Shown: positions 1,093 through 36,525 of the stretch, one piece after another | Layout: every line of letters starts with the position of its first letter | How positions within the stretch are numbered: the first letter of the stretch is position 1 | Origin: Chroococcidiopsis sp. CCMEE 29 | Lineage (GTDB): Bacteria; Cyanobacteriota; Cyanobacteriia; Cyanobacteriales; Chroococcidiopsidaceae | Length of the DNA: 64,000 bases | NCBI RefSeq assembly: GCF_023558375.1 | Contig: NZ_CP083761.1 | Coordinates: forward strand, 4,233,001-4,297,000 | Direction of reading: 5' to 3' | The notes under the pieces: model-generated | The model's input: the letters and a program-made list of their open reading frames with translations, nothing else | The model's database searches: none | Told to the model about the DNA's origin: nothing | Made by a program: the position numbers and the translations under genes

Positions 1093-1177
1093 AGTACCGT
1101 TTTTGGTTAGGAAGGTTACGAACAGGTACCTGCAAGTGCCTTGCAGCAAGACTTTGTTAATCTAAAATCCAAAATCC
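1093..1177. repeat. Dispersed repeat copy A (inverted relative to 10622-10711)
   Basis: About 85 bp here match 10622-10711 in inverted orientation. Both copies share a perfect hairpin, CTGCAAG-NNN-CTTGCAG (1130-1146 here), an AAAATCC/AAAATCT-type tract at one edge and an ACCGTTTTTGGTTAG-like block at the other. The remainder of the gap between the coiled-coil gene and the DUF72 gene shows no gene or other signal I can support. Confidence 0.75.
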
Positions 1178-1275
1178 GAAATTGGCAGAATCCTCTAACT
1201 ATAGGCTAAAAAATCAATTGTTTAATACCCTCTTCCTGACGACTGAAGTTTGGGCAAGCACAGGTAGTAGTCGCC

Positions 1276-2130
1276 TCAGAACAAACTGAGTTGGTCAGGA
1301 GATTGCTGAATGTTGCTCCAGGGGAGGGGCGGCACAGAAATACCTTGCTGTACTAACATCTGTTGAAAGTAACGAGCCGTGCCAGGCGATCGCGCTTCGA
1401 TTGGGCAATGAACAAAGAAATAAAGGCGCGTCCCCTGACGTAGCCAGTGGTCAACAAAGGCAATCCATTCTTCTAAAAAAGTTTGATTAAATTCCCGCTG
1501 AGGATGGCTAATGAAGCGAATCAAACTAAACGGTGCAGTGACACTCAATTGCAGAGGGAGCTTGGGTTTACGTCGCTCAGAAGCTATCTGTGGCTCGTCT
1601 GGACCACTGTAGATGGGACGGCTATCTAGCAAAACCCGACCAACGCCTAGCTGTTCCAGTACAGTTGTGAGTTGACTAGTATAAGGTTCCCGGAACCAGT
1701 CAGGATGACGGACTTCTAATGCCAGTGGTGCTTCACTATGAGGCCAAGCGCTGAGAAAGGCGGTGAGGTCATCTAGTAAAGTGGGGCTGTAACGAGGTGG
1801 CAGTTGAGCAAAGATGGGTCCCAGCCGATCGCCTAAATCGCGCATCTGTGCCAGGAAACTTAAAGCACCCGGAATAGATGGCTGTAGCCGTCCTTGGTGG
1901 GTCAAATCTCGCGGCAACTTGAGGCAAAATTCGAAACCCGGCGGTGTTTCTGCCACCCATCGCGCTACAGTATCCCGATCAGGGACGGCGTAGAAAGTAG
2001 TGTTACCTTCAACCGTGGTGAGGCGCTGGCTATAAAGATGCAGAAATTCGATTGGACGACTTCCAGACGGATAAAAATCGCCGACCCAACCTTTGTATGA
2101 CCAAACAGCGCAACCGAGACGGAAGTTCAT
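1276..2130 (-). CDS. DUF72 (YecE-like) family protein
   Basis: A 284-residue protein of the DUF72/YecE family, a TIM-barrel fold of unknown biochemical function. The family hallmarks are visible: the N-terminus MNFRLGCAVWSYKGWVGDFYP, the EGNTTFYAVP block near residue 40, FCLKLPRDLTH near 70, LALEVRHPDWF near 140 and YFFVHCPIEA near 240. The frame extends upstream to a TTG at 2199, but the family's conserved start coincides with the ATG at 2130, so that start is used; no clear ribosome binding site precedes either. It diverges from the small gene at 2219. Confidence 0.9.
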   Translation of the reverse strand: MNFRLGCAVWSYKGWVGDFYPSGSRPIEFLHLYSQRLTTVEGNTTFYAVPDRDTVARWVAETPPGFEFCLKLPRDLTHQGRLQPSIPGALSFLAQMRDLGDRLGPIFAQLPPRYSPTLLDDLTAFLSAWPHSEAPLALEVRHPDWFREPYTSQLTTVLEQLGVGRVLLDSRPIYSGPDEPQIASERRKPKLPLQLSVTAPFSLIRFISHPQREFNQTFLEEWIAFVDHWLRQGTRLYFFVHCPIEARSPGTARYFQQMLVQQGISVPPLPWSNIQQSPDQLSLF

Positions 2131-2218
2131 GTCTATTGATACTGACGGACTTGAACCGATGACCCTCATAATAGCAACAGGGCTAAATTCATCTTGCAAT
2201 TAGGAGACACAAAGCACA

Positions 2219-2452
2219 ATGCGCTGTGCCATTTCAAGTCGTGCTGGTCAAGTCTTAGCTAAGGGTCACTTACTCATTCAAAAAGAAGAGAGTGGTGCAC
2301 TCAGGCTCAGCTTCCAAACAGATGGAGGAAAGGTAATTTCAGGAGGGCTCATTGACCCGGAGGGAGATATGACTTCAGCCAGTAAAGTGCTATTTCGCGA
2401 ATTCTTTAAGACTTGGGGAATGAGCGATATCACAGTGACTGCGATCGCCTAA
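2219..2452 (+). CDS. Small hypothetical protein (77 aa)
   Basis: I do not recognise this gene. It has a credible ribosome binding site (TAGGAG, about 12 nt before the ATG) and reads MRCAISSRAGQVLAKG with a mixed alpha/beta composition, no signal peptide and no membrane segment. It ends 16 bp from the convergent J-domain gene. It could be a small conserved cyanobacterial protein; nothing in the sequence indicates function. Confidence 0.6.
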   Translation: MRCAISSRAGQVLAKGHLLIQKEESGALRLSFQTDGGKVISGGLIDPEGDMTSASKVLFREFFKTWGMSDITVTAIA

Positions 2453-2467
2453 TATCGAACTACGTAC

Positions 2468-3163
2468 CTAGGGGTGAATTGTCCCATCAGGCATAATTGT
2501 CCTCGTTAAAATTGCTCCGGTCAGTTTGACCATGAGGCGGTCTTTTGTTCCAACCTTGGCTCCCCTCAAATCGGCTTCGCTTAAGTCAGCTCCACTTAAG
2601 TCAGCTCCAATTAAGTTCGCCTCCTGCAAATTAGCCTGACTCAGATTTGATTGCAGTAAGTTGGCTCTAAACAAATTTGCTCTGTAAAGATTTGCTCCCT
2701 GCAAATTGACCTTATGCAGAAAAGCATCGCTGAGGTTAGCATTACTTAGATCGGCGTTGCTCAGATTTCTTCCTGATAAGTCTTTTTCTTTCAGAAAAGC
2801 TCCACGCAAGTCAGCTCCACTCAGATCGGAATTTGGCTTTTTGCCTTGATATTGAGCTTGAGAGGCAGAGTAATAGTGCGGTTGGGGTGGCTTTTGGGGT
2901 TGGCGTGGGGGTGCTGGTTTTGGTGATGGAGGTGATTGGGTATTGGGGTTGCGACTACTAGATCGCATTGACCGCAATTTGTCACGTGCCTGATTAATTT
3001 CCTTGAGCTTTTCTTGAGCCTTTTGCTGTAGCCTTTCATTGTCTTGAGGGATGCGATCAGGGTGCCAAATAAAAGCTAAATCTTTATAAGCCTGGTTCAC
3101 TTCTTCCGGTGACGCTCCAGGCTCAAGCCCAAGTACTCTAAAGTAGTGGTCTAGATCTTTCAT
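2468..3163 (-). CDS. J-domain protein fused to pentapeptide repeats
   Basis: A 231-residue fusion. Residues 1-65 form a DnaJ-type J domain (DHYFRVLGLEPGASPEEV, with HPD in the helix II-III loop, AFIWHPDR), so it should stimulate an Hsp70 partner. A Pro/Gln/Ser-rich linker follows (about 70-105). The C-terminal part is an A(D/N)LxX pentapeptide-repeat array (about 110-215: ADLRGAFL, NADLSNANLSDA, ADLSGADLSEADL), predicted to form a right-handed quadrilateral helix. The frame continues upstream to 3304, but the J domain starts at the ATG at 3163 and the extra residues look non-coding. Cysteine-rich zinc and C-terminal DnaJ domains are absent, so this is a type III J protein. Confidence 0.9.
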   Translation of the reverse strand: MKDLDHYFRVLGLEPGASPEEVNQAYKDLAFIWHPDRIPQDNERLQQKAQEKLKEINQARDKLRSMRSSSRNPNTQSPPSPKPAPPRQPQKPPQPHYYSASQAQYQGKKPNSDLSGADLRGAFLKEKDLSGRNLSNADLSNANLSDAFLHKVNLQGANLYRANLFRANLLQSNLSQANLQEANLIGADLSGADLSEADLRGAKVGTKDRLMVKLTGAILTRTIMPDGTIHP

Positions 3164-3336
3164 TACCACCAACCTACCATTTATTAGTTTGGCATACTGA
3201 AATTTGGTATACAACCAAGCACGGGCTGTTAATAGGCGTGGCGATCGCCTGAGTGGATCGACTTTGCAAACAACGCGCTGCAAGTGGACATGAACATAAG
3301 ACAATGGTGGGGTACATGAAGGAGAATGATTAATCT

Positions 3337-4065
3337 GTGATTGTTAACCAAGACGAGCAGGGTTGGGAAATTATCTACCATCGTGCCCATGCACTGCTTG
3401 CAGCTCAAATAGCGGCACACTGGAACCGTAAAGATACCCCTGTTCGCTTGATCGAGACAGTGGCGGCGATTTCCCATCACGATGACCTCGAACGCGAATG
3501 GGAAGAGAAGAATCTTACCCCAGCTGGCGCACCGTTGGACTTTACCCTCGACAAAAACACTGATTTGCAAAAGCTGAGAAAACTGATAACAGGTGCTCGC
3601 TACCGGGGACGGTGGGTGGCAATGTTGACTTCTATGCATACAAGCTTTCTGAATGAAGGCAAGCGGGGAGAGTCAGCTGAACTAGACAGCTTTTTGGACG
3701 AGCAACTAGAGATGCAAAAGCAATTGAGAAAAGGATTGCAGATTAACAAGCAGGAGGCTGAGCAAGCTTATGCGTTCATGCAGTGGTGCGATCGCCTCTC
3801 TTTGATCCTATGCCAGCGCCAATTACCAGTAGGTGAGCGAGCCTTAGAAATTAGTAAGGGACCAAACGGCAAGCGCTATGACGTGCTCCAGCTCAGTGAT
3901 GAACGAATAACCGTCACACCCTGGCCGTTTGAAGAGGAAGACCTCACTGTCAACGTTGAAGCTGCGTACCTGTCTCAAGTGCAATTTGATAGTAGCACTG
4001 CCCTTGCAGAAGCACTGCAAACTGCACCCATTAAAACTTTAAAGTGGACGTTTGCCAAGGCTTGA
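3337..4065 (+). CDS. DUF3891 family protein
   Basis: A 242-residue cytosolic protein matching DUF3891, a cyanobacterial/bacterial family without assigned reaction. Histidine-rich blocks suggest metal binding: YHRAHALLAAQIAAHW near residue 15, AAISHHDDLEREW near 45 and MLTSMHTSFL near 97, an arrangement reminiscent of HD-type hydrolases (inference). The start is a GTG at 3337 with AAGGAG about 12 nt upstream. Its 3' end overlaps the following thioesterase frame by 22 nt, suggesting translational coupling. Confidence 0.85.
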   Translation: MIVNQDEQGWEIIYHRAHALLAAQIAAHWNRKDTPVRLIETVAAISHHDDLEREWEEKNLTPAGAPLDFTLDKNTDLQKLRKLITGARYRGRWVAMLTSMHTSFLNEGKRGESAELDSFLDEQLEMQKQLRKGLQINKQEAEQAYAFMQWCDRLSLILCQRQLPVGERALEISKGPNGKRYDVLQLSDERITVTPWPFEEEDLTVNVEAAYLSQVQFDSSTALAEALQTAPIKTLKWTFAKA

Positions 4066-4517
4066 TAGATTCAGACGTGGAAGTATCACCTAAGAATTGG
4101 TTTGAATATTCAGTCCGGGTGCAACCTCATCACACTGACTATGCAGGTATTGCTTGGCATGGTTCTTATATAGCGTGGATGGAAGAGGCGCGGGTGGAAT
4201 GTTTACGCTCAATTGGGATTGAGTTTGCACAGCTAGTCGCGTTAGGGTGCGATTTACCAGTAGTAGAGCTTTCTGTGCGCTACCACCGGCAAATTCAACT
4301 GGGTAGGTTAGCTATAGTCAGGACGCGCATGGCAAACTTAAGCGGTGTTCGGATTCCCTGGGATTATCAAATTCAATCTCCAGATGGGCAAGAACTGTAT
4401 GTGACGGCGCGGGTAACATTGGTAGCAGTTGATCGAGAAAAAGGCAAGATTATGCGTCGGTTGCCCCCAGCAATGGAGCATGCTTTGGCTCCTCTTGCCA
4501 ATATATCTGGTGATTAA
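4044..4517 (+). CDS. Hotdog-fold acyl-CoA thioesterase family protein
   Basis: A 157-residue single-hotdog protein of the 4HBT/YbgC type. The family motif is clear near residues 29-51: HHTDYAGIAWHGSYIAWMEEAR, in which the Asp after HHT is the expected catalytic residue and HGSYIAWMEEAR is the hot-dog helix. It probably hydrolyses an acyl-CoA or acyl-ACP; the substrate cannot be read from the sequence (aromatic acyl-CoAs, including DHNA-CoA, are handled by relatives). The GTG at 4044 overlaps the preceding gene; a GTG at 4077 is an alternative start, and the conserved domain begins just after it. Confidence 0.85.
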   Translation: MDVCQGLIDSDVEVSPKNWFEYSVRVQPHHTDYAGIAWHGSYIAWMEEARVECLRSIGIEFAQLVALGCDLPVVELSVRYHRQIQLGRLAIVRTRMANLSGVRIPWDYQIQSPDGQELYVTARVTLVAVDREKGKIMRRLPPAMEHALAPLANISGD

Positions 4518-4656
4518 GCTTAATTAGACCGAAACCCTACTATGGATAGACTTGCCTCAAACGAGATGATGTTAATTGTGTTAGGAGTTGCCAAGACTAT
4601 CTGAATTATTTCACTCCCGCCTGGGTGCCAATGTATGTAGGGATAAGCAAAGACCA

Positions 4657-5181
4657 ATGGATGAGTACACAGACCAAAACGAAAGTATCAAGAAGCTGCA
4701 TGAACTGATTAAAGATATCAGATTTGCAATGCTGACGACTGTTGAAGAAGATGGTACGTTACGCAGCCGTCCGATGGCAACTCAGGAATTCGAGTTCGAT
4801 GGCAACCTTTGGTTTTTTACAAATGCTAACGCGCCTAAAGTTGACGAAGTAAAGCACGATCAGCACGTTAATCTCAGCTATGCTGAGCCGGATAAACAAA
4901 AGTATGTTTCGGTTTCGGGCAAAGCCCAACTTGTACGCGATCGCCACAAAATAGAAGAACTCTGGAATCCAATTTACAAAGCTTGGTTTCCCCAAGGTTT
5001 AGATGACCCCAACCTATCACTGCTGAAGGTGAGCGTTGACAAAGCAGAATATTGGGATTCGCCTTCGAGTCAAGTCGTGCGTCTTTTTGGATTTGTGAAA
5101 GCAGCTGTTACAGGTAAGCCTATTAGTAACGCTGGTGAGAACGAGAAGATTAAAGCTCCATTTCCTAGGCAAAGCAGTTGA
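4657..5181 (+). CDS. Pyridoxamine 5'-phosphate oxidase-like general stress protein
   Basis: A 174-residue split-barrel flavin-binding-fold protein of the general stress protein 26 (YdaG-like) group. Visible blocks are IRFAMLTTVEEDG near 19-31, LRSRPMATQEFEFDG near 33-47, LWFFTNANAPKVDEV and VSGKAQLVRDR. It is likely an FMN/F420-fold oxidoreductase or flavin-binding stress protein; the substrate is unknown. An in-frame TTG at 4588 would add 23 residues, but the ATG at 4657 starts at the family's usual position. It is preceded by a 140-bp gap and followed by the proline-alternating peptide gene. Confidence 0.88.
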   Translation: MDEYTDQNESIKKLHELIKDIRFAMLTTVEEDGTLRSRPMATQEFEFDGNLWFFTNANAPKVDEVKHDQHVNLSYAEPDKQKYVSVSGKAQLVRDRHKIEELWNPIYKAWFPQGLDDPNLSLLKVSVDKAEYWDSPSSQVVRLFGFVKAAVTGKPISNAGENEKIKAPFPRQSS

Positions 5182-5196
5182 AAGTATGAGGTTAGC

Positions 5197-5412
5197 ATGA
5201 TATCAACTCAGTCCCTCTCAAGCATCTCTAAGTTCGCTCTCAAGGCGATTACAACTAACCCTGAGCTTGAGCCGATGCCTGCATCTGAACCAGATCCTGA
5301 ACCAATTCCTTCTCCAGAACCAGGCTCTGAACCAGATCCTGAACCGACTCCCGCGCCTACTCCCGAACCGGATCTTGTGCCTGAACTCGATCCCGTTCCT
5401 ACCCCATCTTAA
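5197..5412 (+). CDS. Small proline-alternating peptide (PE/PD repeats)
   Basis: A 71-residue frame with an ATG 5 nt after GAGG. Residues 1-20 are ordinary (MISTQSLSSISKFALKAITT); from about residue 21 nearly every second residue is proline, with Glu, Asp, Ala or Thr between (units such as PEPDPEPIPSPEP). This would form an extended acidic polyproline-II rod. No signal peptide is evident. It is one of two such genes in the window; the other lies at 36571-36798 and is neutral (PGP/PQP). It may be a real secreted or linker-like protein or a low-complexity frame; the sense-strand bias and binding site favour a gene. Confidence 0.5.
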   Translation: MISTQSLSSISKFALKAITTNPELEPMPASEPDPEPIPSPEPGSEPDPEPTPAPTPEPDLVPELDPVPTPS

Positions 5413-5475
5413 GCCCAAGCGTCTGTTTTACTGACTGTAAGGACGTATCACTATGCGCCCCTACTTTGAAACAGA

Positions 5476-6612
5476 TCAAAACTGGTAAGAAACACCGACA
5501 GAAAGAACGGGGTAGATACGCAGTCCTCTCAGCTCATCCTCTAGATCCTCCTCTTCCCGCTGGATCGCATCTTGTAGAAATGGTCCGACCACTGGAGCAC
5601 CAACTAATGTACCTACTGGACCCGTGGCATTCAAATCTACTTGAGGCGAACCAGCAAACAATATACCCAGGTCAATAGAAAAACCAAATTGTCGCCCTTG
5701 CCTGACTGGGTTGCCATAGCCAATGCCGATATAGGGGGAAATCGTGTTGGGAAATGTGAGTTCACCTTCCAGTTGACCAACCAATGCGAGGGGAAACTCT
5801 ACACCGCCAATCTCCAAAGTTTCCGCCGATCGAGCCGTTCCTTCAACCTTGTTATTGTTATAGGCAAGACCGCCGGTAAGGCGAAATTCACTTCTGCTGG
5901 ATGGAAACCAGTCAACCAGCGCTGTTGCACTTAATAGCCGCACATCAGCATCGTAGTCAATATCTGCCTGCTCAGTGTTGATTCCGAAATCAAAGTAATT
6001 AAACCCCAGTCTGCCATTAAAGTTGGGAGAAATTGCGCCTGTCCCTTCAATACCAAAGCCTAGTGTACTAACCTTACCCGTAATTGCATAACCGCTTGAC
6101 TGTCTTTCCACTGCTGGTTGTGCTGCTGGCTGTTGCCTCTGCTGTTGTGGAGGCTGATAATTAGCACAGCGCGAATTGAGTGGATAATTTCGACAGAAGG
6201 TATCTATATCAACTTGTCTAGCAAGGAATTGTTCCTCCATTTTTTTTTCAACTAAAGCGAATTCACCCTCTAGTTGTAAATCAGCAGCATCATAAGAAAC
6301 ATCGGTCTGAGAATTAGTGTGAAGAGGAATGCTATTAAGCTCCTTTTTGCTATTGTTATTTTTCGAAAGCGCTTGAATCAGTTTAGCTTCCTTACTAAGG
6401 CTTTGGAGGCTAGACAACGTCGTAACACCACTGCTGTTTTTGCTTTGCTGGTCTATTGCTAGCTCTGCTGACTCATGCTCTTTTTCATTCGTGGTGTTCG
6501 GGTCAATTTCCGCAGCAATAACTTGTTGGGGTATTACTCCACTAATCAGGAATGTGGTAATGATGCTCAGGCAAAATAAACCTACTTGTGATGAATTTCC
6601 GCTGTTTGACAT
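5476..6612 (-). CDS. Probable outer-membrane beta-barrel protein
   Basis: A 378-residue exported protein. Residues 1-34 form a signal peptide (hydrophobic LFCLSIITTFLISGVI, cleavage likely after VIAAEI). Residues 35-170 are a low-complexity Ser/Asn/Gln-rich region ending in a PQQQRQQPAAQPA linker. From about 175 onward there are alternating amphipathic strands rich in Gly, Tyr and Phe (GRLGFNYFDFGI, FRLTGGLAYNN, ISPYIGIGYG), and the chain ends in SVGVSYQF with a terminal Phe, the usual outer-membrane insertion signal. It is not a recognised porin; the function is unknown. Confidence 0.8.
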   Translation of the reverse strand: MSNSGNSSQVGLFCLSIITTFLISGVIPQQVIAAEIDPNTTNEKEHESAELAIDQQSKNSSGVTTLSSLQSLSKEAKLIQALSKNNNSKKELNSIPLHTNSQTDVSYDAADLQLEGEFALVEKKMEEQFLARQVDIDTFCRNYPLNSRCANYQPPQQQRQQPAAQPAVERQSSGYAITGKVSTLGFGIEGTGAISPNFNGRLGFNYFDFGINTEQADIDYDADVRLLSATALVDWFPSSRSEFRLTGGLAYNNNKVEGTARSAETLEIGGVEFPLALVGQLEGELTFPNTISPYIGIGYGNPVRQGRQFGFSIDLGILFAGSPQVDLNATGPVGTLVGAPVVGPFLQDAIQREEEDLEDELRGLRIYPVLSVGVSYQF

Positions 6613-6822
6613 TCCTCGTCTTCCTCTAGACAGGTATATCAGCCTTTTAGCTGATTCAGCGTACTAACTCATCTAGCCTACTGAAGACGACAAAAAAAGC
6701 ATTATTTGCTGTTTCTCACAAATAGTTTCTGGATCTTCCGCTTGGTCTTAGCGAATCAAAGTTTCTTTTTGCTACTTGTTTTTTACAACTCAAAGTTGCG
6801 ACTCACTCATTTTTGGCTAGGC

Positions 6823-8142
6823 TTAACTCAACCGACCAAACAGCGCTGCCAAAACAACATTAGAAAATAAGAATCCTTCCGGATCGGTTAACCTCAGTTG
6901 CCCAGATGTTGGGATGTAACTAGCATTCGGTACGAACGTCGCTTTCTCCTCGGTTCCCAAAATTTCCACCCAACCTTGGCGATGGTAGGGTTGCAAACAC
7001 TGCCAAATCTTTCCCAGCGTTGCTTCCCCAAATTGCTGAGTCAAGGTTAATATGCTTACACCCTCTTTAAGCCGTAACCCTAGCATCAGCGTCTCTAGCA
7101 GCACTTCATCTGGCAGTGTTTGAGGATGATCCAATAAGCCACCTACCGCAATTAAGTTTTGCACCCACTGGTAATATTCTTTCGTCTTGCGGGGTCGGGT
7201 AAATCTTTTCTCTTCAACATAGCTTGTCGCTCCCATGCCAAAGCCATAATAAGAGCGGTTTTCCCAGTAAACCCGGTTATGACGACACTGATGTCCTGGT
7301 TGGGCATAGTTCGAAATTTCGTAGTGCTCGTAGCCTGCAGTTGTGATGAGAACTTGTCTTGCCTGACGGTACATCTGTACTGTGGTGTCATCGGTGGGCA
7401 AAGGTTGAACACCGGGTTGATAGTAACGACCAAAGGCAGTGCCAGGCTCGATGGTGAGGTCGTAAATAGAGATATGGGTAGGAGCGATCGCCACTGCTGC
7501 CTCCAGAGATTCCTGCCACTGTTCCAGGGTTTGACGCGGCAGTCCAGAAATCAAATCCAGGCTGAAATTTGGCACTCCCACTTGGCGAACAATCTCTACT
7601 GCTGCCCAGATATCAGCAACGGTATGCGATCGCCCACAAACTTGCAACAATTCTGGCTGAAACGCCTGCACGCCTAAACTTACTCTATTTACCCCGGCTG
7701 CGCGGTATCCCTGCAACTGTTCTAAACTGAACGTGCCAGGGTCCATTTCCATTGAAATTTCTGCATCCGCTGAGATCCCAAACCTTTGATTTAGGGCATC
7801 GAGTATATGATTCAGTTGGTTTATAGATAGCAACGAAGGTGTGCCACCACCAAAGAACACTGTTTTTAACGGTTGCCCTAGTGCTGGGGTGATAGCAATT
7901 TCTTGGCATAAAGCTTCAACGTACTGGGAAATAGTGCCAGAGGAGTCACCATGAAGGCGCTCGCCCACAACCGAAATTGGGAAATCACAGTAATAGCACC
8001 GCCGACGACAAAAGGGAATATGTACATAAGCGGAACTAGGAATGCCCAGAGCTATTGCTTCCTGGGCTGAATATAAGTTAACTAACACTGAATTTATAGC
8101 CAAAATCAAAACAGCAGGAAAATCTGAAAAGAATTTAATCAA
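6823..8142 (-). CDS. hemW: Radical SAM heme chaperone HemW
   Basis: A radical S-adenosylmethionine protein of the HemW (formerly HemN-like) group, thought to deliver heme rather than act as coproporphyrinogen oxidase. The 4Fe-4S motif CRRRCYYC follows SAYVHIPF near residue 40; VFFGGGTPSLL and the C-terminal HemN-type domain (LMLGLRLKEGV) are present. The extra Cys before the CxxxCxxC of true HemN is absent, consistent with HemW. Conserved homology begins around residue 33 (GIPSSAYVHIPF), so the ATG at 8142 gives an unusually long hydrophobic leader; a later start is possible. Confidence 0.92.
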   Translation of the reverse strand: MIKFFSDFPAVLILAINSVLVNLYSAQEAIALGIPSSAYVHIPFCRRRCYYCDFPISVVGERLHGDSSGTISQYVEALCQEIAITPALGQPLKTVFFGGGTPSLLSINQLNHILDALNQRFGISADAEISMEMDPGTFSLEQLQGYRAAGVNRVSLGVQAFQPELLQVCGRSHTVADIWAAVEIVRQVGVPNFSLDLISGLPRQTLEQWQESLEAAVAIAPTHISIYDLTIEPGTAFGRYYQPGVQPLPTDDTTVQMYRQARQVLITTAGYEHYEISNYAQPGHQCRHNRVYWENRSYYGFGMGATSYVEEKRFTRPRKTKEYYQWVQNLIAVGGLLDHPQTLPDEVLLETLMLGLRLKEGVSILTLTQQFGEATLGKIWQCLQPYHRQGWVEILGTEEKATFVPNASYIPTSGQLRLTDPEGFLFSNVVLAALFGRLS

Positions 8143-8405
8143 AAATTTCTTTTAACTTGTTACATCACTCAAAAGATAGAAAGGTCTCGTAGCCTTATAT
8201 ACTAAACCCTGCTTCCCTTCCAGATGAACTCAGTGCAGTTAAATCTGAGTGCAACTAGTTTTTGGTAACAAAATACTAAATCAATTGAAATGACTCAAAT
8301 TTATTAAATTTTGATTGGTGCCTACGGCAGTTCTTAACCAGCACCTAATAACGTTAAAGATATATCATAGAGCCAGATCAACAAATTGCTGATTCTAGTA
8401 CAAAA

Positions 8406-9542
8406 ATGGTTGCTGAATCCCAAGTAACGGACTTGCAACCAAATTCAATTAGATTTAAACCAATGCTTGATGCAATCATTATTATCTCATTTATCATAGC
8501 AGGAGCGGGCATCGGCTTCTATAGTATTGAGCTGCTACCATCAGGAGTGCAGCAGCAAGTTACGAATACAGATGCTTTACGCATAGTCTTTGCCGGTTTT
8601 GGCTTCCTGATTGGGGGTGCTGTTGGGCTGAGTTTCCAGACGACCTATCGTCGCCTTGAAGCCCAAGTCCGCGAAATGCCGGTAGATGTCCTATTAACTC
8701 GTGCAATTGGCTTGGTAATCGGGCTATTAATAGCAAACCTAATGTTGGCTCCGCTGTTCTTATTGCCTATTCCAGCAGATTTTGGCTTTATTAAGCCATT
8801 AGTTGCAGTTTTAGGAAGTGTGATGTTTGCCTTCTCTGGCATTAACCTGGCTGATACCCATGGGCGGACTTTCTTGCGGCTAATTAATCCCCACACTGTG
8901 GAAACGATGTTACTGGCAGAAGGTACGCTCAAGCCTGCTGCCACTAAAGTTTTAGACACTAGCTGCATCATCGATGGTCGGCTTGAGGGGTTACTAGATA
9001 CAGGATTTATGGAAGGGCAAATTCTAGTGCCACAGTTTGTGTTGCAGGAACTGCAACAATTAGCAGATGGTGCCAAAGATCTGAAGCGGGTGCGGGGACG
9101 GCGAGGACTGGAAATTCTCAACCGCATTAAGGTAGCTTACCCAGAACGCATCCTGATTAATCCCATTGACTACGAAGATGTACCGACGGTCGATGCCAAA
9201 TTAGTGCGATTCGCCCAAGAAATCAACGGCACTTTGCTAACGAATGACTACAACTTGTCTCAAGTTGCCAGTGTACAGAAAGTGCCTGTGTTGAATATTA
9301 ACGATTTGGTTAACGCAGTTCGTCCGACCTATCTGCCAGGTGACAACCTTGATCTGAAGATTCTCAAGGAAGGCAAAGAACCTAGCCAAGGTATAGGTTA
9401 CTTGGAGGATGGCACGATGGTTGTAGTCGAGGATGGCAGTAGTTATGTCGGTGGTGAAATCCGGGTAGTGGTGACGAGTGCTTTGCAAACTTCAGCAGGG
9501 AGAATGATTTTTGCTAGACCCCAAGCTTCTGCCTTTGCTTGA
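8406..9542 (+). CDS. PIN/TRAM-domain membrane protein (YacL-like)
   Basis: A 378-residue protein with four predicted membrane helices (about 21-42, 58-76, 97-118 and 128-145), a PIN nuclease-fold domain (about 180-300) and a C-terminal TRAM domain (about 307-372). PIN acidic residues are visible at DTSCIIDGR (near 184), QELQQL (near 215), VDAKLV (near 262) and TNDYNL (near 281). Related YacL proteins are annotated as membrane-bound PIN/TRAM ATPases/RNases. The start ATG has no strong binding site. It is transcribed alone, with a strong terminator 45 bp after the stop. Confidence 0.9.
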   Translation: MVAESQVTDLQPNSIRFKPMLDAIIIISFIIAGAGIGFYSIELLPSGVQQQVTNTDALRIVFAGFGFLIGGAVGLSFQTTYRRLEAQVREMPVDVLLTRAIGLVIGLLIANLMLAPLFLLPIPADFGFIKPLVAVLGSVMFAFSGINLADTHGRTFLRLINPHTVETMLLAEGTLKPAATKVLDTSCIIDGRLEGLLDTGFMEGQILVPQFVLQELQQLADGAKDLKRVRGRRGLEILNRIKVAYPERILINPIDYEDVPTVDAKLVRFAQEINGTLLTNDYNLSQVASVQKVPVLNINDLVNAVRPTYLPGDNLDLKILKEGKEPSQGIGYLEDGTMVVVEDGSSYVGGEIRVVVTSALQTSAGRMIFARPQASAFA

Positions 9543-9586
9543 GACGACGGGAAGGTAATGGCGCGATCGCTTCGGAGCAAACTTTG

Positions 9587-9621
9587 AAACCGGTGTAGTC
9601 AACCTGCACCGGTTTTGTTTT
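9587..9621 (+). terminator. Rho-independent terminator after the PIN/TRAM gene
   Basis: A perfect 9-bp stem AAACCGGTG (9587-9595) / CACCGGTTT (9607-9615) with an 11-nt loop, followed by a T-rich tail (TTGTTTT). Confidence 0.85.
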
Positions 9622-9743
9622 GAAGCAGTGGAGGACAACTGATTACAAAAGCACTGAACCTTCTTTTGTACCAGCGTACATCTACTCAATTGAAATAACC
9701 TGCAGCGCAAGCAATGCCAACATTCTCAGTAAATTTACGCTGG

Positions 9744-9775
9744 ATATTGCTCAGAGGGAGCAATATGTTTCTTTT
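9744..9775 (+). terminator. Second intrinsic terminator-like hairpin in the same gap
   Basis: ATATTGCTC (9744-9752) pairs with GAGCAATAT (9758-9766) around a 5-nt loop, followed by GTTTCTTTT. It lies about 130 bp beyond the terminator at 9587 and about 150 bp before the secreted-protein gene. It could end a short unannotated transcript, or act as leader attenuation for the downstream gene. No open frame in 9622-9743 looks coding. Confidence 0.55.
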
Positions 9776-9928
9776 GTAACTTTGTTGTGCGTTAGTGAAA
9801 AACATTCGTAAGCAGAATAATTCACCTTTGAGCTGATTTTTTAACATTTATTGTCTATTGACTTTTCTTTGCTTCTCGATTGCACAGCACCAGTTTGCAC
9901 AACAAGCAAGTCTTGAGGATAAATAACG

Positions 9929-10531
9929 ATGAAAACAGCAATTGCTGGAGCCGTTTTGACTGCGCTAAGCCTTAGCCTTCCAGCTATAGCCGCCACTACC
10001 AATAAATTCCATGTCAAGGGGCAGAATGTTTCTGCCAACTTTTACCAATATGACGACTGCAACTCAACCAATGTCTATGTCTCAGCCTATAACAATATCA
10101 CTAAGGATAGCCCAGGTGCTCCGACTGAGCAGCTGGGAGCATACCTCGACTATTACAACTACAATTACTGCACTGGGACATATTCATATGTTTCTGGCTC
10201 CAGTTCAAGCGCTAACTTCACAATTGACAACAGGCTCGACTCGGCAACTTTAAATGGCACGTTCACACTCTACGATTACTCATCAAGAACTCCCAAAACG
10301 GCGGATGTGGCGTTGACCTGGAAGGGAGTGGGTGATACGTCCAGTGGCAAGAGCAATTACACTTATCAGACACCAACTAGCACAATACGTTCTCGCTCCA
10401 ACGGCGAATCCCGCGATGCAGAAGTTTCGGGTAGCATTACCTTGGATGGCACAAACCTCATTACTAATACATCCAACTATGGTTATCTATCCTCCTCTAA
10501 GAGTGGGTACCTGGAACGCACTGCAAAGTAG
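9929..10531 (+). CDS. Secreted Ser/Tyr/Thr-rich protein, hypothetical
   Basis: A 200-residue protein with a clear signal peptide (MKTAIAGAVLTALSLSLPAIAA, cleavage after AIA near 21). The mature part is rich in Ser, Thr, Tyr and Asn, with two cysteines near 44 and 81, and looks like an all-beta extracellular domain (NVYVSAYNNIT, YLDYYNYNYC, ATLNGTFTLYDY). GAGGA stands about 11 nt before the ATG. I do not recognise a family; it could be a surface or secreted matrix protein. A long hairpin follows the gene. Confidence 0.8.
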   Translation: MKTAIAGAVLTALSLSLPAIAATTNKFHVKGQNVSANFYQYDDCNSTNVYVSAYNNITKDSPGAPTEQLGAYLDYYNYNYCTGTYSYVSGSSSSANFTIDNRLDSATLNGTFTLYDYSSRTPKTADVALTWKGVGDTSSGKSNYTYQTPTSTIRSRSNGESRDAEVSGSITLDGTNLITNTSNYGYLSSSKSGYLERTAK

Positions 10532-10560
10532 ACAGGAATTAGCCTTCGGGAAGCTTCTTC

Positions 10561-10618
10561 GGTGGTGTTGTAGAACTGTTGGTGAGGTGGCACTGACCAA
10601 CACACCTACAACACTACC
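10561..10618 (+). terminator. Long imperfect hairpin after the secreted-protein gene
   Basis: The outer arms GGTGGTGTTGTAG (10561-10573) and CTACAACACTACC (10606-10618) pair with one mismatch, and an inner 6-bp stem GTTGGT/ACCAAC (10578-10583 / 10596-10601) lies between. The sequence after it is CAATTTTGGATTTT, so it can serve as a terminator; it directly abuts the dispersed repeat at 10622. Confidence 0.6.
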
Positions 10619-10621
10619 CAA

Positions 10622-10711
10622 TTTTGGATTTTAGATTTTGGATTAGATAAACCTTTGCTGCAAGGCGCTTGCAGAGTACCTATTTGTAGTCTTGCTAACC
10701 GAAAACGGTGC
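10622..10711. repeat. Dispersed repeat copy B (inverted relative to 1093-1177)
   Basis: An inverted copy of 1093-1177. It starts with the TTTTGGATTTTAGATT tract, contains the hairpin CTGCAAG-GCG-CTTGCAG (10658-10674) and ends near CTAACCGAAAACGGT. The arms of the hairpin are conserved exactly between copies while the loop differs (GCG here, GCA on the same strand in copy A), which suggests the fold matters. Confidence 0.75.
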
Positions 10712-10826: not shown

Positions 10827-11144
10827 ATGCCAAGCAAACGCTACAAGGCAGCCTGGGCGAGAATCGGGAATTCGTCTGGTTTTCGAGTAGAGAACGGCTT
10901 TTTTAAGGATAATCCTCAATTTGCTGGAGCAAGGGGCGAAGTTCAAGTCATTAATTCCGATACCTTGCTAGTTCGCCTGCAACCTATAGAGCTTGAACAA
11001 GAAAAAGATGAATTGTTACTGAGTTTATTTCTAGATTTCTTGATGGATAATGCTTTACGCAATCCTGATGAACTGGAAGTTTACACCGAAGCAATGGCAG
11101 CCGAGGATGATGAATTGATAGCAGGAGTGGTAATTGATTCGTAA
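10827..11144 (+). CDS. PrlF-like antitoxin of a type II toxin-antitoxin pair
   Basis: A 105-residue protein directly upstream of, and overlapping, a YhaV-type toxin. The N-terminal half (YKAAWARIGNSSGFRV to DTLLVRL) is compatible with a SpoVT/AbrB-like swapped-hairpin DNA-binding domain. The C-terminal half (LFLDFLMDNALRNPDEL followed by LIAGVVIDS) resembles the C-terminus of PrlF, which binds YhaV. The ATG at 10827 is used; an in-frame upstream GTG-type extension to 10800 adds nine residues of no clear relevance. The pair is probably autoregulated, as PrlF/YhaV is, but no operator stands out. Confidence 0.75.
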   Translation: MPSKRYKAAWARIGNSSGFRVENGFFKDNPQFAGARGEVQVINSDTLLVRLQPIELEQEKDELLLSLFLDFLMDNALRNPDELEVYTEAMAAEDDELIAGVVIDS

Positions 11145-11583
11145 TGGCTGGCGGCTCTACTTCATCAAACGGCTGTTTGGTAAACAACGCCGGGACTTAC
11201 AAGCAAAAGTGCGCCAGTTGAAACAAACCTTGCCTGTCGCGGACTACTATAGCCACGCTACGGTGAAGTTATACACCGCAATCATGGTTGCCATTAAAGA
11301 GAAGATCCCTGAAGACCCTTTTGCCAGTCAATTCGTCCTGCAAGGTTTGCTCAAAAAGTATGGACGAGTAAAAAAAATGGGACTACCCGACCGTTATCGC
11401 CTTTTCTTTCGTGCCTTGCAAACACCAGACCACAAAGCGATTTTCATCCTCTGGTTAGGCTATCCACGTAAAGCAGGAGACAAAAATGATTGTTATCAGA
11501 CTTTTACAAAAATGATTGAAAAAGGAGAATTCCCTGACTCCTTTGATGATTTGCTGTTGAATAGCGACCAAGATGAACCCTAA
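11134..11583 (+). CDS. yhaV: YhaV family toxin (endoribonuclease)
   Basis: A 149-residue protein with the YhaV signature: NGWRLYF near the start, a basic central helix, RYRLFFRAL near 88 and IFILWLGYPRKAGDKNDCYQ, ending TFTKMIEKGEFPDSFDDLL. YhaV is a RelE-superfamily ribonuclease neutralised by PrlF. The start is a TTG at 11134 that overlaps the antitoxin gene by 11 nt, which is typical for coupled translation of such pairs. Its stop overlaps the stop of the convergent von Willebrand A gene by 3 nt. Confidence 0.88.
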   Translation: MIRNGWRLYFIKRLFGKQRRDLQAKVRQLKQTLPVADYYSHATVKLYTAIMVAIKEKIPEDPFASQFVLQGLLKKYGRVKKMGLPDRYRLFFRALQTPDHKAIFILWLGYPRKAGDKNDCYQTFTKMIEKGEFPDSFDDLLLNSDQDEP

Positions 11584-14395: not shown

Positions 14396-14453
14396 CCCCA
14401 AACAGCGGCTCTCTTCTTCTCGTGCTTCCCTAGCTAAAATCTAAAATCAAATC

Positions 14454-16923: not shown

Positions 16924-18228
16924 ATGACGCAGGCGACCACATACCAAGCTCAAGCAACAGATGCCACCTTTAAAGCCTTGAAGTGTAAGGAATGTGGCGC
17001 AGAGTACGAACTCAAAGCTAGCCATGTTTGTGAATTCTGCTTTGGTCCTTTAGAAGTTACCTACGACTACAGCGCTCTGCGCCGTAAAGTCACTCGCGAA
17101 AGCATTCAAGCAGGACCGCATTCAATTTGGCGCTATCGTCCGTTCTTGCCCGTTGCCACTGACACGCCAATTGATGTGGGAACAGGTATGACCCCCCTAG
17201 TGCAAGCAAATCGGTTGGCACGGCGCTTAGGGTTGAAAAAGCTTTACATCAAGAACGATGCCGTCAATATGCCTACCCTCAGCTTCAAAGATCGGGTAGT
17301 TTCAGTTGCCCTCACCCGCGCTCGCGAGCTAGGTTTCTCCACCGTCTCTTGTGCCAGCACTGGAAATTTAGCTAATTCTACAGCTGCGATCGCTGCCCAT
17401 GCTGGTCTAGACTGCTGCGTCTTCATCCCCGCTGACTTAGAAGCTGGGAAAATCCTGGGGACTCTAATTTACAGTCCTACCTTGATGGCAGTTCAGGGTA
17501 ACTATGACCAAGTTAACCGTCTGTGCTCAGAAGTTGCCAACACCTATGGCTGGGGCTTCGTCAACATTAACTTGCGCCCCTATTATTCTGAAGGTTCAAA
17601 AACCCTCGGTTATGAAGTTGCAGAACAGCTAGGATGGCAACTGCCAGATCACATCGTCGCTCCCCTAGCTTCAGGTTCCCTCTTTACCAAAATCTACAAA
17701 GGTTTCCAGGAATTTATTCAAGTTGGCTTGGTGGCAGATAAGCAAGTCCGGTTCAGTGGAGCTCAGGCAGAAGGTTGTTCGCCCATAGCCCAAGCCTACA
17801 AAGAAGAACGCGATTTTATCAAGCCAGTTAAGCCCAACACGATCGCTAAATCAATCGCGATCGGCAACCCAGCTGACGGTGTTTATGCGGTTGAAGTAGC
17901 GCGAAAAACCAACGGCAATATTGAATCAGTCAATGATGCTGAAATTATTGATGGTATCAAGCTACTAGCTGAAACTGAAGGCATTTTTACAGAAACAGCG
18001 GGTGGAACAACGATCGCTGTGCTGAAGAAACTAGTAGAAGCAGGTAAGATTGACCCAGATGAAACCACTGTGGTTTACATTACCGGCAATGGGCTAAAAA
18101 CCCAGGAAGCTGTTCAAGGCTACGTTGGTGAGCCTTTGACAATTGAAGCGAAACTGGATAGCTTTGAACGGGCGCTAGAGCGCTCGCGTACACTAGAGCG
18201 CCTCGACTGGCAGCAAGTCCTGGTTTGA
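16924..18228 (+). CDS. thrC: Threonine synthase
   Basis: A 434-residue PLP enzyme converting O-phosphohomoserine to threonine. It has an N-terminal zinc-ribbon-like extension (CKECGAEYELKASHVCEFC, four Cys), found in the longer threonine synthases, then the fold-type II core with the PLP lysine in PTLSFKDRV near residue 117 and the glycine-rich phosphate loop in ASTGNLANSTA. The ATG at 16924 has GGAG about 10 nt upstream; an in-frame TTG at 16906 is less likely. A sulfur-carrier gene follows on the same strand. Confidence 0.95.
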   Translation: MTQATTYQAQATDATFKALKCKECGAEYELKASHVCEFCFGPLEVTYDYSALRRKVTRESIQAGPHSIWRYRPFLPVATDTPIDVGTGMTPLVQANRLARRLGLKKLYIKNDAVNMPTLSFKDRVVSVALTRARELGFSTVSCASTGNLANSTAAIAAHAGLDCCVFIPADLEAGKILGTLIYSPTLMAVQGNYDQVNRLCSEVANTYGWGFVNINLRPYYSEGSKTLGYEVAEQLGWQLPDHIVAPLASGSLFTKIYKGFQEFIQVGLVADKQVRFSGAQAEGCSPIAQAYKEERDFIKPVKPNTIAKSIAIGNPADGVYAVEVARKTNGNIESVNDAEIIDGIKLLAETEGIFTETAGGTTIAVLKKLVEAGKIDPDETTVVYITGNGLKTQEAVQGYVGEPLTIEAKLDSFERALERSRTLERLDWQQVLV

Positions 18229-18254
18229 TTTTAGATTTTAGATTTTGGATTTGG
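18226..18254. repeat. TTTTAGATTTTGGAT-type tandem tract
   Basis: A short AT-rich tandem tract of TTTTAGA/TTTTGGA heptamers between thrC and the MoaD-like gene. Similar tracts occur at 1160-1177, 10622-10645, 14434-14453 and 36495-36525, always beside gene ends. Confidence 0.7.
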
Positions 18255-35403: not shown

Positions 35404-36495
35404 TTACACATTAAACCGGAAGAGCAGCACATCGCCTTCCTGAACTACATAATCTTTCCCCTCACTGCGAACTAAACCCTTTTCCTTCGCAGCATTCATC
35501 GCTCCAGTTGCCACGAGGTCATTATAGGCAACAGTTTCAGCTCGAATAAAGCCCCGCTCAAAATCAGAGTGAATCACACCAGCTGCCTGAGGTGCAAGCA
35601 TTCCCGCCCGAATTGTCCAAGCGCGGGTTTCTTTGGGACCACTCGTGAAGTAGGTACGCAAACCTAAGAGTTCATAAGTAGCGCGAATCAAGGTCTTTAA
35701 CCCACCTTCTTCCACTCCCAAAGAGGCAAGAAAGTCTGCTCGGTCTTCCTCTGGTAACTCTACTAGCTCTGATTCCACCTGAGCCGAAACTACTACAACT
35801 TGAGCCTTTTCTTGTTGGGCAATTTGCCGCACCTGCTCTACCCACTGATTCCCCGTTGCTAAATCTTCCTCAGACACATTAGCAGCGTAGATGATCGGTT
35901 TACTGCTGAGTAGTCCCAGTCCCTTAATCATTTCAGCTTCTTCTTCAGTTAAACCAACCTGCCGAACCGATTTTCCCTCATTTAGCGCAGCACTCAATTT
36001 TTCCAGCAGAGCTAGTTCTGCTTGAGCATCTTTGTTGGCACGAGCTTGTTTACGAGTGCGCTCCATCCGCCGTTCGATTTGTGCCAAATCGGCTAAAGCT
36101 AGTTCCAAATTGATGATTTCAATATCTCGCACGGGGTCAACAGAACCAGCAACGTGGATAATGTCGTCGTTCTCAAAACAACGCACCACATGGACAATGG
36201 CATCAACTTCCCGGATGTGGGACAGAAATTGATTACCTAGTCCCTCGCCCTGACTCGCACCTTTGACCAAACCAGCAATATCCACAAACTCAACGCGAGC
36301 CGGGACAATTTGCGCCGAGGAAGAAATATTAGCTAGAACATTTAACCGCTCATCTGGCACTGAGACAACACCGACATTCGGTTCAATTGTGCAAAAAGGG
36401 AAATTAGCCGCCTCAGCTTTAGCATTGGCAACCAAGGCGTTAAATAAGGTAGATTTTCCGACGTTGGGAAGTCCGACAATCCCGGCTCTTAGCAT
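35404..36495 (-). CDS. ychF: Redox-regulated ATPase YchF (Obg-like)
   Basis: A 363-residue P-loop protein of the Obg family. G1 is [15 protein letters not shown] near residue 8, G3 [16 protein letters not shown] near 73; the base-recognition motif is altered (YAANVSEED), as in YchF, which prefers ATP. A coiled-coil insertion ([17 protein letters not shown]) and a C-terminal TGS domain ([18 protein letters not shown], ending VLLFRFNV) follow. It binds ribosomes and modulates translation under oxidative stress. Confidence 0.96.
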
Positions 36496-36525
36496 TTTGA
36501 ATTTTAGATTTTGGATTTTGGATTG
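36495..36525. repeat. TTTTAGATTTTGGAT-type tandem tract
   Basis: AT-rich heptamer tract (TTTTAGA/TTTTGGA) just upstream of ychF's start, of the same family as that at 18226. Confidence 0.7.

What the first reader, a model, noticed from the sequence alone, without database searches (positions are those of the whole stretch)
1093..10711. Inverted pair of about 85-bp dispersed repeats around a conserved hairpin
Segments 1093-1177 and 10622-10711 are diverged inverted copies. The hairpin CTGCAAG-NNN-CTTGCAG is identical in the stems while the loop differs, which suggests selection on structure. Each sits just after or between genes and carries an AAAATCC-type tail. It resembles REP/MITE-type elements or a small RNA family and would allow inversion of the 9.5-kb segment between.
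Basis: seen in the sequence. Interest (0 to 1): 0.55.

Follow-up and report, generated by a model that had tools for sequence, protein, structure and literature searches.

The report
MITE-like repeat family in cyanobacterium
The two repeats belong to a family of about 75 or more short, non-coding copies of about 95 bases scattered mostly between genes of this cyanobacterial chromosome, most probably miniature transposable elements: an ordinary kind of thing, though I found no description of this particular family.

Summary
In detail: window 1093-1188 (+) and 10617-10710 (-) are 83% identical over 92 bp. They are not a special inverted pair: a model built from 25 copies finds 75 matches at E <= 1.1e-8 in the same genome, 72 of them outside ORFs. 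The unit is about 95 bp, runs TACCGTTTT...AAAATTGGTA with imperfect inverted ends, usually with GC on either side, carries a 7-base tandem tail, and folds back weakly. Closely similar copies lie in unrelated flanks; the element interrupts a second repeat family whose uninterrupted form shows the empty site; at four of five places compared, relatives show no element, the fifth is inconclusive. Best reading: MITE-like non-autonomous transposable elements (0.77). The transposase was not found, and the 2-bp target duplication is only suggested. Selection on the hairpin is not supported (18 of 25 copies break or lose the stem; covariation no better than shuffles). RAYT-type REP is not supported. 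Inversion of the 9.5-kb segment has no support. No Rfam match; transcription could not be tested. Known kind, apparently new family, low to moderate interest.

The parts
1093..1188 (+). Copy A of the element (family model match)
   Evidence: (E 6.3e-22)
10617..10710 (-). Copy B of the element (family model match)
   Evidence: (E 8.7e-25)
1095..1110 (+). Left inverted end of A, TACCGTTTTTGGTTAG
1159..1187 (+). Heptamer tail and right inverted end of A, ...GAAATTGGCA
1130..1146 (+). Central hairpin of A, CTGCAAG-TGC-CTTGCAG
   Evidence: not conserved in the family
10658..10674 (-). Central hairpin of B, CTGCAAG-CGC-CTTGCAG on the minus strand
   Evidence: not conserved in the family
10699..10710 (-). 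Left inverted end of B, CACCGTTTTCGG (T of TACC changed to C)
10615..10641 (-). Heptamer tail and right end of B, ...AAAATTGGGTA

Best explanation
A family of miniature, non-coding, non-autonomous transposable elements (MITE-like). The unit is about 95 bp (TACCGTTTTCGGTTAG...AATCCAAAATCTAAAATCCAAAATTGGTA). A transposase supplied in trans would recognise the imperfect inverted ends and insert the unit at sites rich in TGCA, perhaps duplicating the central 2 bp (usually GC). Shown: copy number, defined ends, placement outside ORFs, closely similar copies in unrelated flanks, no detectable element at four of five orthologous places in relatives, mutual nesting with a second repeat family. Inferred: that a transposase did it, which one, the target preference and the 2-bp duplication, and that hairpin and heptamer tail are not the reason for the spread.
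For: 75 matches at E <= 1.1e-8 to a 25-copy model (150 of 3404 first-look candidates were scored, so a lower bound; E-values of such models are rough). Conservation drops at both ends: on the left at most 0.10 bits per column from -12 to -6, then 0.19, 0.34, 0.61 (T), 0.93 (G), 0.85 (C), 1.03 (T), 1.88 (A); on the right GGTA is followed by G in 39 of 46, C in 40, A in 24, T in 20 (64 left and 46 right ends of 75 copies). 25 of 48 copies with both ends readable have GC on both sides. A second repeat has 26 places matching its uninterrupted form GTGGSAT-NN-GCATC (NN: 15 GG, 9 AG, 1 CG, 1 TG; reversed-pattern controls 0) and five copies interrupted at that point by an element with both junctions. 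The closest two copies differ by 1.2% in the head while their left flanks are 32% identical; four close pairs range from 18 to 32%. 72 of 75 copies lie outside ORFs of 120 codons or more, while 2226 of 3304 random places fall inside such ORFs. At 647816 the flanking match blocks are 7 bp apart in three relatives against 251 bp here; at 427457 three relatives have 61-81 bp between the blocks, less than the element, with nothing above shuffles. Fold-back z -1.30 and -1.07 for the two strands against -0.05 for neighbouring DNA (56 copies).
Against: No unit with the same ends around a transposase was found. In the five interrupted copies only one (2102896) has the same two letters on both sides; the other four differ at one letter, and all five probably descend from one insertion (same place, similar heads). 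Outside GC/GC only 2 of the remaining 23 two-ended copies have equal dinucleotides and 1 has a palindromic pair, so a duplication and a longer inverted end cannot be told apart. At site A the interval in three relatives is as long as here (301-312 bp against 302), so there is no length difference to show an insertion. At 3582242 the result is inconclusive. Exact junctions of empty sites in relatives could not be read. With DNA energy parameters the consensus did not fold as one long hairpin.
Confidence: 0.77

Rival explanations
1. REP/REPIN element moved by a RAYT transposase; the hairpin is what the enzyme recognises.
For: The ends read CTACC...GGTAG, so a GTAG is present; REP families occur in cyanobacteria (PMC3733652, passages).
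Against: One Y1 transposase match in the genome (12 of 12 candidates scored), next to a TnpB-like ORF, i.e. IS200/IS605 type; no stem next to the GTAG; the central stem is broken or lost in 18 of 25 copies without covariation.
Confidence: 0.06
2. A repeat that spreads without a transposase of its own, by template switching or recombination between heptamer arrays (an idea near that of very small cyanobacterial repeats, recalled from Elhai 2008, paper not held).
For: Heptamer arrays occur without the head in many places; tail length varies (0 to 3 extra units in the 39 of 75 copies that the pattern caught); a second hairpin sits at the same point of the tail in five copies.
Against: The head holds no heptamers, has a sharp left end and is found with the tail in most of the 75 copies.
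Confidence: 0.12
3. A regulatory or small-RNA element kept for its hairpin.
For: Copies lie mostly between genes and fold somewhat better than shuffles.
Against: No Rfam match at E <= 1, no consensus pair, no covariation, not detected at the same places in relatives.
Confidence: 0.04
4. A simple old inverted duplication of two loci of the window.
For: B is the closest copy to A.
Against: 75 matches in the genome, and B is closer to at least six other copies than to A.
Confidence: 0.01

Closest known systems
Bacterial MITEs such as Nezha, NEMIS/Correia, RUP, ERIC (named in PMC3733652 and PMC10969869, passages seen)
   Same: Size class, inverted ends, no coding capacity, many copies mostly between genes.
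   Different: No partner insertion sequence identified; inverted ends short (about 12-18 bp) and imperfect, where PMC3733652 gives 15-30 bp; heptamer tail inside the right end. Sequence not compared with Nezha (only its title seen, in a reference list).
STRR, short tandemly repeated repetitive sequences of cyanobacteria (Mazel 1990: title seen in a reference list; heptamer nature recalled)
   Same: The tail is a 7-base tandem array.
   Different: Here the array is the end of a larger unit with definable ends.
Small dispersed repeats of cyanobacteria (Elhai 2008: title seen in a reference list; paper not held; content recalled)
   Same: Very short repeats thought to be mobile and found within other repeats.
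   Different: This unit is about 95 bp with inverted ends; sequences not compared.
REPINs (PMC3116915, passages seen)
   Same: Short interspersed fold-back units.
   Different: No RAYT found, no conserved pair of REP stems.

Membership tests
MITE | Short unit without coding capacity (70-300 bp in PMC3733652) | tested here: met
   About 95 bp; 72 of 75 copies outside ORFs of 120 codons or more
MITE | Terminal inverted repeats | tested here: met
   TACCGTTTT.GG against TACCAATTTTGG read from the other strand; imperfect
MITE | Many dispersed copies in unrelated flanks | tested here: met
   75 matches; left-flank identity 0.18-0.32 in the four close pairs compared
MITE | Target-site duplication | tested here: inconclusive
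   Suggested 2 bp at one insertion event, but only 1 of 5 interrupted copies has equal letters; GC/GC elsewhere also fits a longer inverted end
MITE | Related autonomous insertion sequence with the same ends | tested here: inconclusive
   None seen at the mismatch levels used; a lost or diverged partner is possible
REP/REPIN | RAYT transposase in the genome | tested here: not met
   Single PF01797 match, IS200/IS605 type
REP/REPIN | Conserved stem next to a GTAG or CGTC tag | tested here: not met
   No stem next to the GTAG; central stem not conserved
Structured small RNA | Covarying stem | tested here: not met
   Covariation score reached by 233 of 500 shuffles; a version slid by -2 scores higher
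Structured small RNA | Expression | not testable with these tools
   No transcript data

The most novel reading that the evidence does not exclude
A minimal mobile unit of about 95 bp that has spread with no surviving partner transposase in its genome, inserting at TGCA-like sites with a 2-bp duplication, and whose heptamer tail serves as a landing place for further small hairpin elements, so that several very small repeat families build on one another.
Probability: 0.12. Interest if true: 0.5.

Novelty: new member of a known kind. Interest (0 to 1): 0.27.

Why it matters
It explains a puzzling pair of repeats as part of a genome-wide family, gives its ends and a natural empty site, and offers copies (closely similar ones, nested ones) with which activity in close strains could be tested. 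It also shows that a hairpin identical in two copies is no evidence of selection once the family is seen.

Tried and rejected
Conserved structure: rejected (and the model used the 25 copies nearest to B, not a random sample; the variable tail shifts the 3' columns of that alignment, and one row, L010, was cut wrongly at its 3' end). REP/RAYT: rejected. Rfam: nothing at gathering threshold in the window or at E <= 1 at the two copies. Scan of genome contigs with the hairpin core: four records of unrelated bacteria by title, not used further. Plasmids and phages, searched with one copy (L002): one Nostoc plasmid matched by the tail only, no phage. Paper search with tail letters: 59 papers, the 12 listed unrelated by title.

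Longer unit with the same ends: end matches (62 places, reversed-pattern controls 6 and 8; 69 places) were paired (61 and 69 used; the one place on contig 2 left out). Left-right pairs in transposon orientation: only 3586628-3592443 (5.8 kb, two separate copies) and two copies with spans of 176 and 211 bp. Right-right pairs facing outward: five, spanning 1.3-4.8 kb; ten ORFs in these stretches are host-type genes by Pfam, none a transposase (two shorter ORFs of 145 and 115 codons were not scanned). Right-right pairs facing inward: three, not looked into.

Relatives: a weak resemblance to copy A in the alignment did not exceed shuffles. At 440960 in G004 the best match (score 33, 0 of 60 shuffles) falls on the conserved sequence beside the element, aligned to our flank, and not on the element. 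At 3582242, G004 has a bare 18-bp heptamer stretch (score 36, 3 of 60) and G001 a borderline match (31, 2 of 60), G007, G012 and G006 nothing (12, 21 and 14 of 60): inconclusive. Copies B, 660775, 3586628 and 3592358 lie in stretches that I searched but were not evaluated.
Full report
Observation. The window looks cyanobacterial (70 GCGATCGC sites, 46.9% G+C) and lies at G000:C1:4233001-4297000 of a 6.39-Mb assembly of two contigs. Copy A (1093-1188, +) and copy B (10617-10710, -) align at 82.6% over 92 bp, E 2.7e-20.

Copy number. A DNA search with copy B gave 43 matches, 40 with E <= 9.1e-9; only 40 of 363 first-look candidates were scored. A sequence-only model from 25 copies (of the 30 loci, L017, L021, L024, L028 and L030 were left out as truncated or disrupted) gave 153 matches at E <= 0.01, with 150 of 3404 candidates scored. 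I took the 75 with E <= 1.1e-8, some of them partial; below that many are matches to the tail alone. The 75 were fetched and printed with flanks.

Anatomy. The commonest form reads (T)GC-TACCGTTTTCGGTTAG..AGGCTACAAAT.G.TACTCTG.AAGTGCCT.GCAGCA..AGTTTCTCAATCCAAAATCTAAAATCCAAAATTGGTA-GC(A). The ends are imperfect inverted repeats. A typed consensus folds as one long imperfect hairpin with RNA parameters (-24 and -31 kcal/mol for the two strands), but not with DNA parameters (-12 each, other structures). Over 56 of the 75 copies (those of at least 85 bases) the mean folding z-score is -1.30 and -1.07, against -0.05 for neighbouring DNA; 19 and 14 of 56 are below -2, none of 56 controls. The tail is a 7-base tandem array of variable length. 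Clustering of the heads puts 65 copies in one group with 29% mean difference, five in an outlying group, and five outside both.

The hairpin. RNAalifold finds no consensus pair in 25 copies. 7 of 25 copies have all seven pairs of the stem; 18 have mismatches or gaps, one of them lacking the 5' arm. 77.6% of cells pair, shuffles give 76.8%; the covariation score (0.080) is reached by 233 of 500 shuffles, and a version slid by -2 scores 0.126; two pairs show one double change each. The true register pairs better than slid ones (77.6% against at most 41.2%), as a palindrome in the ancestor would give. So identity of the stems between A and B is no evidence of selection on structure.

Ends and target. 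Ends were located by end words (up to 2 mismatches on the left, 1 on the right), so only the flanking columns are an unbiased guide. 64 left ends: at most 0.10 bits from -12 to -6, then 0.19, 0.34 (A or T), 0.61 (T, 43 of 64), 0.93 (G, 50), 0.85 (C, 48). 46 right ends: G 39, C 40, A 24 (0.31 bits), T 20 (0.20 bits, no more than some columns further out). This fits a preferred TGCA-like target with GC duplicated, but also a longer inverted end GCTACC...GGTAGC. Of 48 copies with both ends readable, 25 have GC/GC, two have other equal pairs (GG/GG in the composite described below, AG/AG in an outlying-group copy), one a palindromic pair, 20 neither. By eye, one copy that the script misplaced (2591301) reads TC/TC.

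A natural empty site. A second repeat (TATAGCAATCC...GATTGCTATA) matches its uninterrupted form at 26 places (two of them, L144 and L145, in one duplicated stretch), with GTGGSAT-NN-GCATC at the critical point, NN being GG 15, AG 9, CG 1, TG 1. Six places run from it into our element at exactly that point; two are incomplete (L161, L163), four, and a fifth at 3582242, have both junctions. Left pairs GG, GG, AG, GG, GA; right pairs GA, GG, GG, AG, GG (order 5229235, 2102896, 5120320, 1878558, 3582242). So AT-RG-[TACC...GGTA]-RG-GCATC describes four of five left and four of five right junctions, but only 2102896 has equal letters on both sides. It suggests a 2-bp duplication and does not prove it; I count it as one insertion followed by spread of the composite. 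In the other direction the second repeat interrupts our element at 2248278, where our element resumes behind it, and it follows our element at 2927971.

Dispersal. The closest copies (5346833 and 1921621) differ by 1.2% in the head while their left flanks are 32% identical; three other close pairs have 18-24%. Five sites were compared with relatives. A: three relatives keep the two neighbouring genes and an interval of the same length (301-312 bp against 302), with no similarity to any of the 75 copies above shuffles (best 26; 95th percentile 28-29). 427457: 61-81 bp between the blocks in G004, G006 and G013, nothing above shuffles. 647816: 7 bp in G001, G007 and G012. 440960: six relatives; five show nothing above shuffles, and the G004 match is our conserved flank. 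3582242: inconclusive. The G007 match and the weaker G012 match resemble the outlying group and lie in the same flanks, so some copies are old and inherited.

Location. 72 of 75 copies lie outside ORFs of 120 codons or more; the three inside are 3178830, 46136 and 5403246; random places fall inside in 2226 of 3304 cases. A lies between a DUF72 gene and the gene to its left; B between an ORF without Pfam match and a pair of ORFs whose second is YhaV-like.

Transposase. One Y1 transposase match, beside a TnpB-like ORF. No longer unit with these ends was found. The enzyme is unknown.

Conclusion. Two ordinary members of a MITE-like family. I did not find this family described in the listings, in an open-access library only; the paper on very small cyanobacterial repeats is not held. 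That G001 may be Chroococcidiopsis thermalis is recalled from its chromosome length, not checked.

Noticed in passing
G000:C1, e.g. 2248342, 2470201, 3474092 (loci L133-L158): A second repeat of about 95 bp with ends TATAGCAATC...GATTGCTATA, 26 places with its uninterrupted form; nested with the family of this report in both directions.
   Followed up: partly
L097, L104, L110, L111, L120 (also L100 and L105 by eye): A G+C-rich hairpin of about 47 bp (ACGCCACTTTGC...GTGGCTCC) sits at the same point of the heptamer tail in five copies with different heads; one has a perfect 20-bp stem.
   Followed up: partly
window 10827-11583: A small ORF without Pfam match followed by a YhaV-like toxin gene (PF11663), probably a toxin-antitoxin pair, next to copy B.
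   Followed up: no
window 14434-14451, 18224-18252, 36494-36524: Short matches to the heptamer tail without the head.
   Followed up: no
loci L165, L166, L169, L171, L173, L175-L177, L181, L182: Heptamer tails joined to AGCAGGGG-type arrays, some also to CCCCTCGCCCC-type arrays; a recurring mosaic.
   Followed up: no
L221 and L222 (G007 and G012): Copies like the outlying group at the same place in two related genomes, apparently inherited.
   Followed up: no
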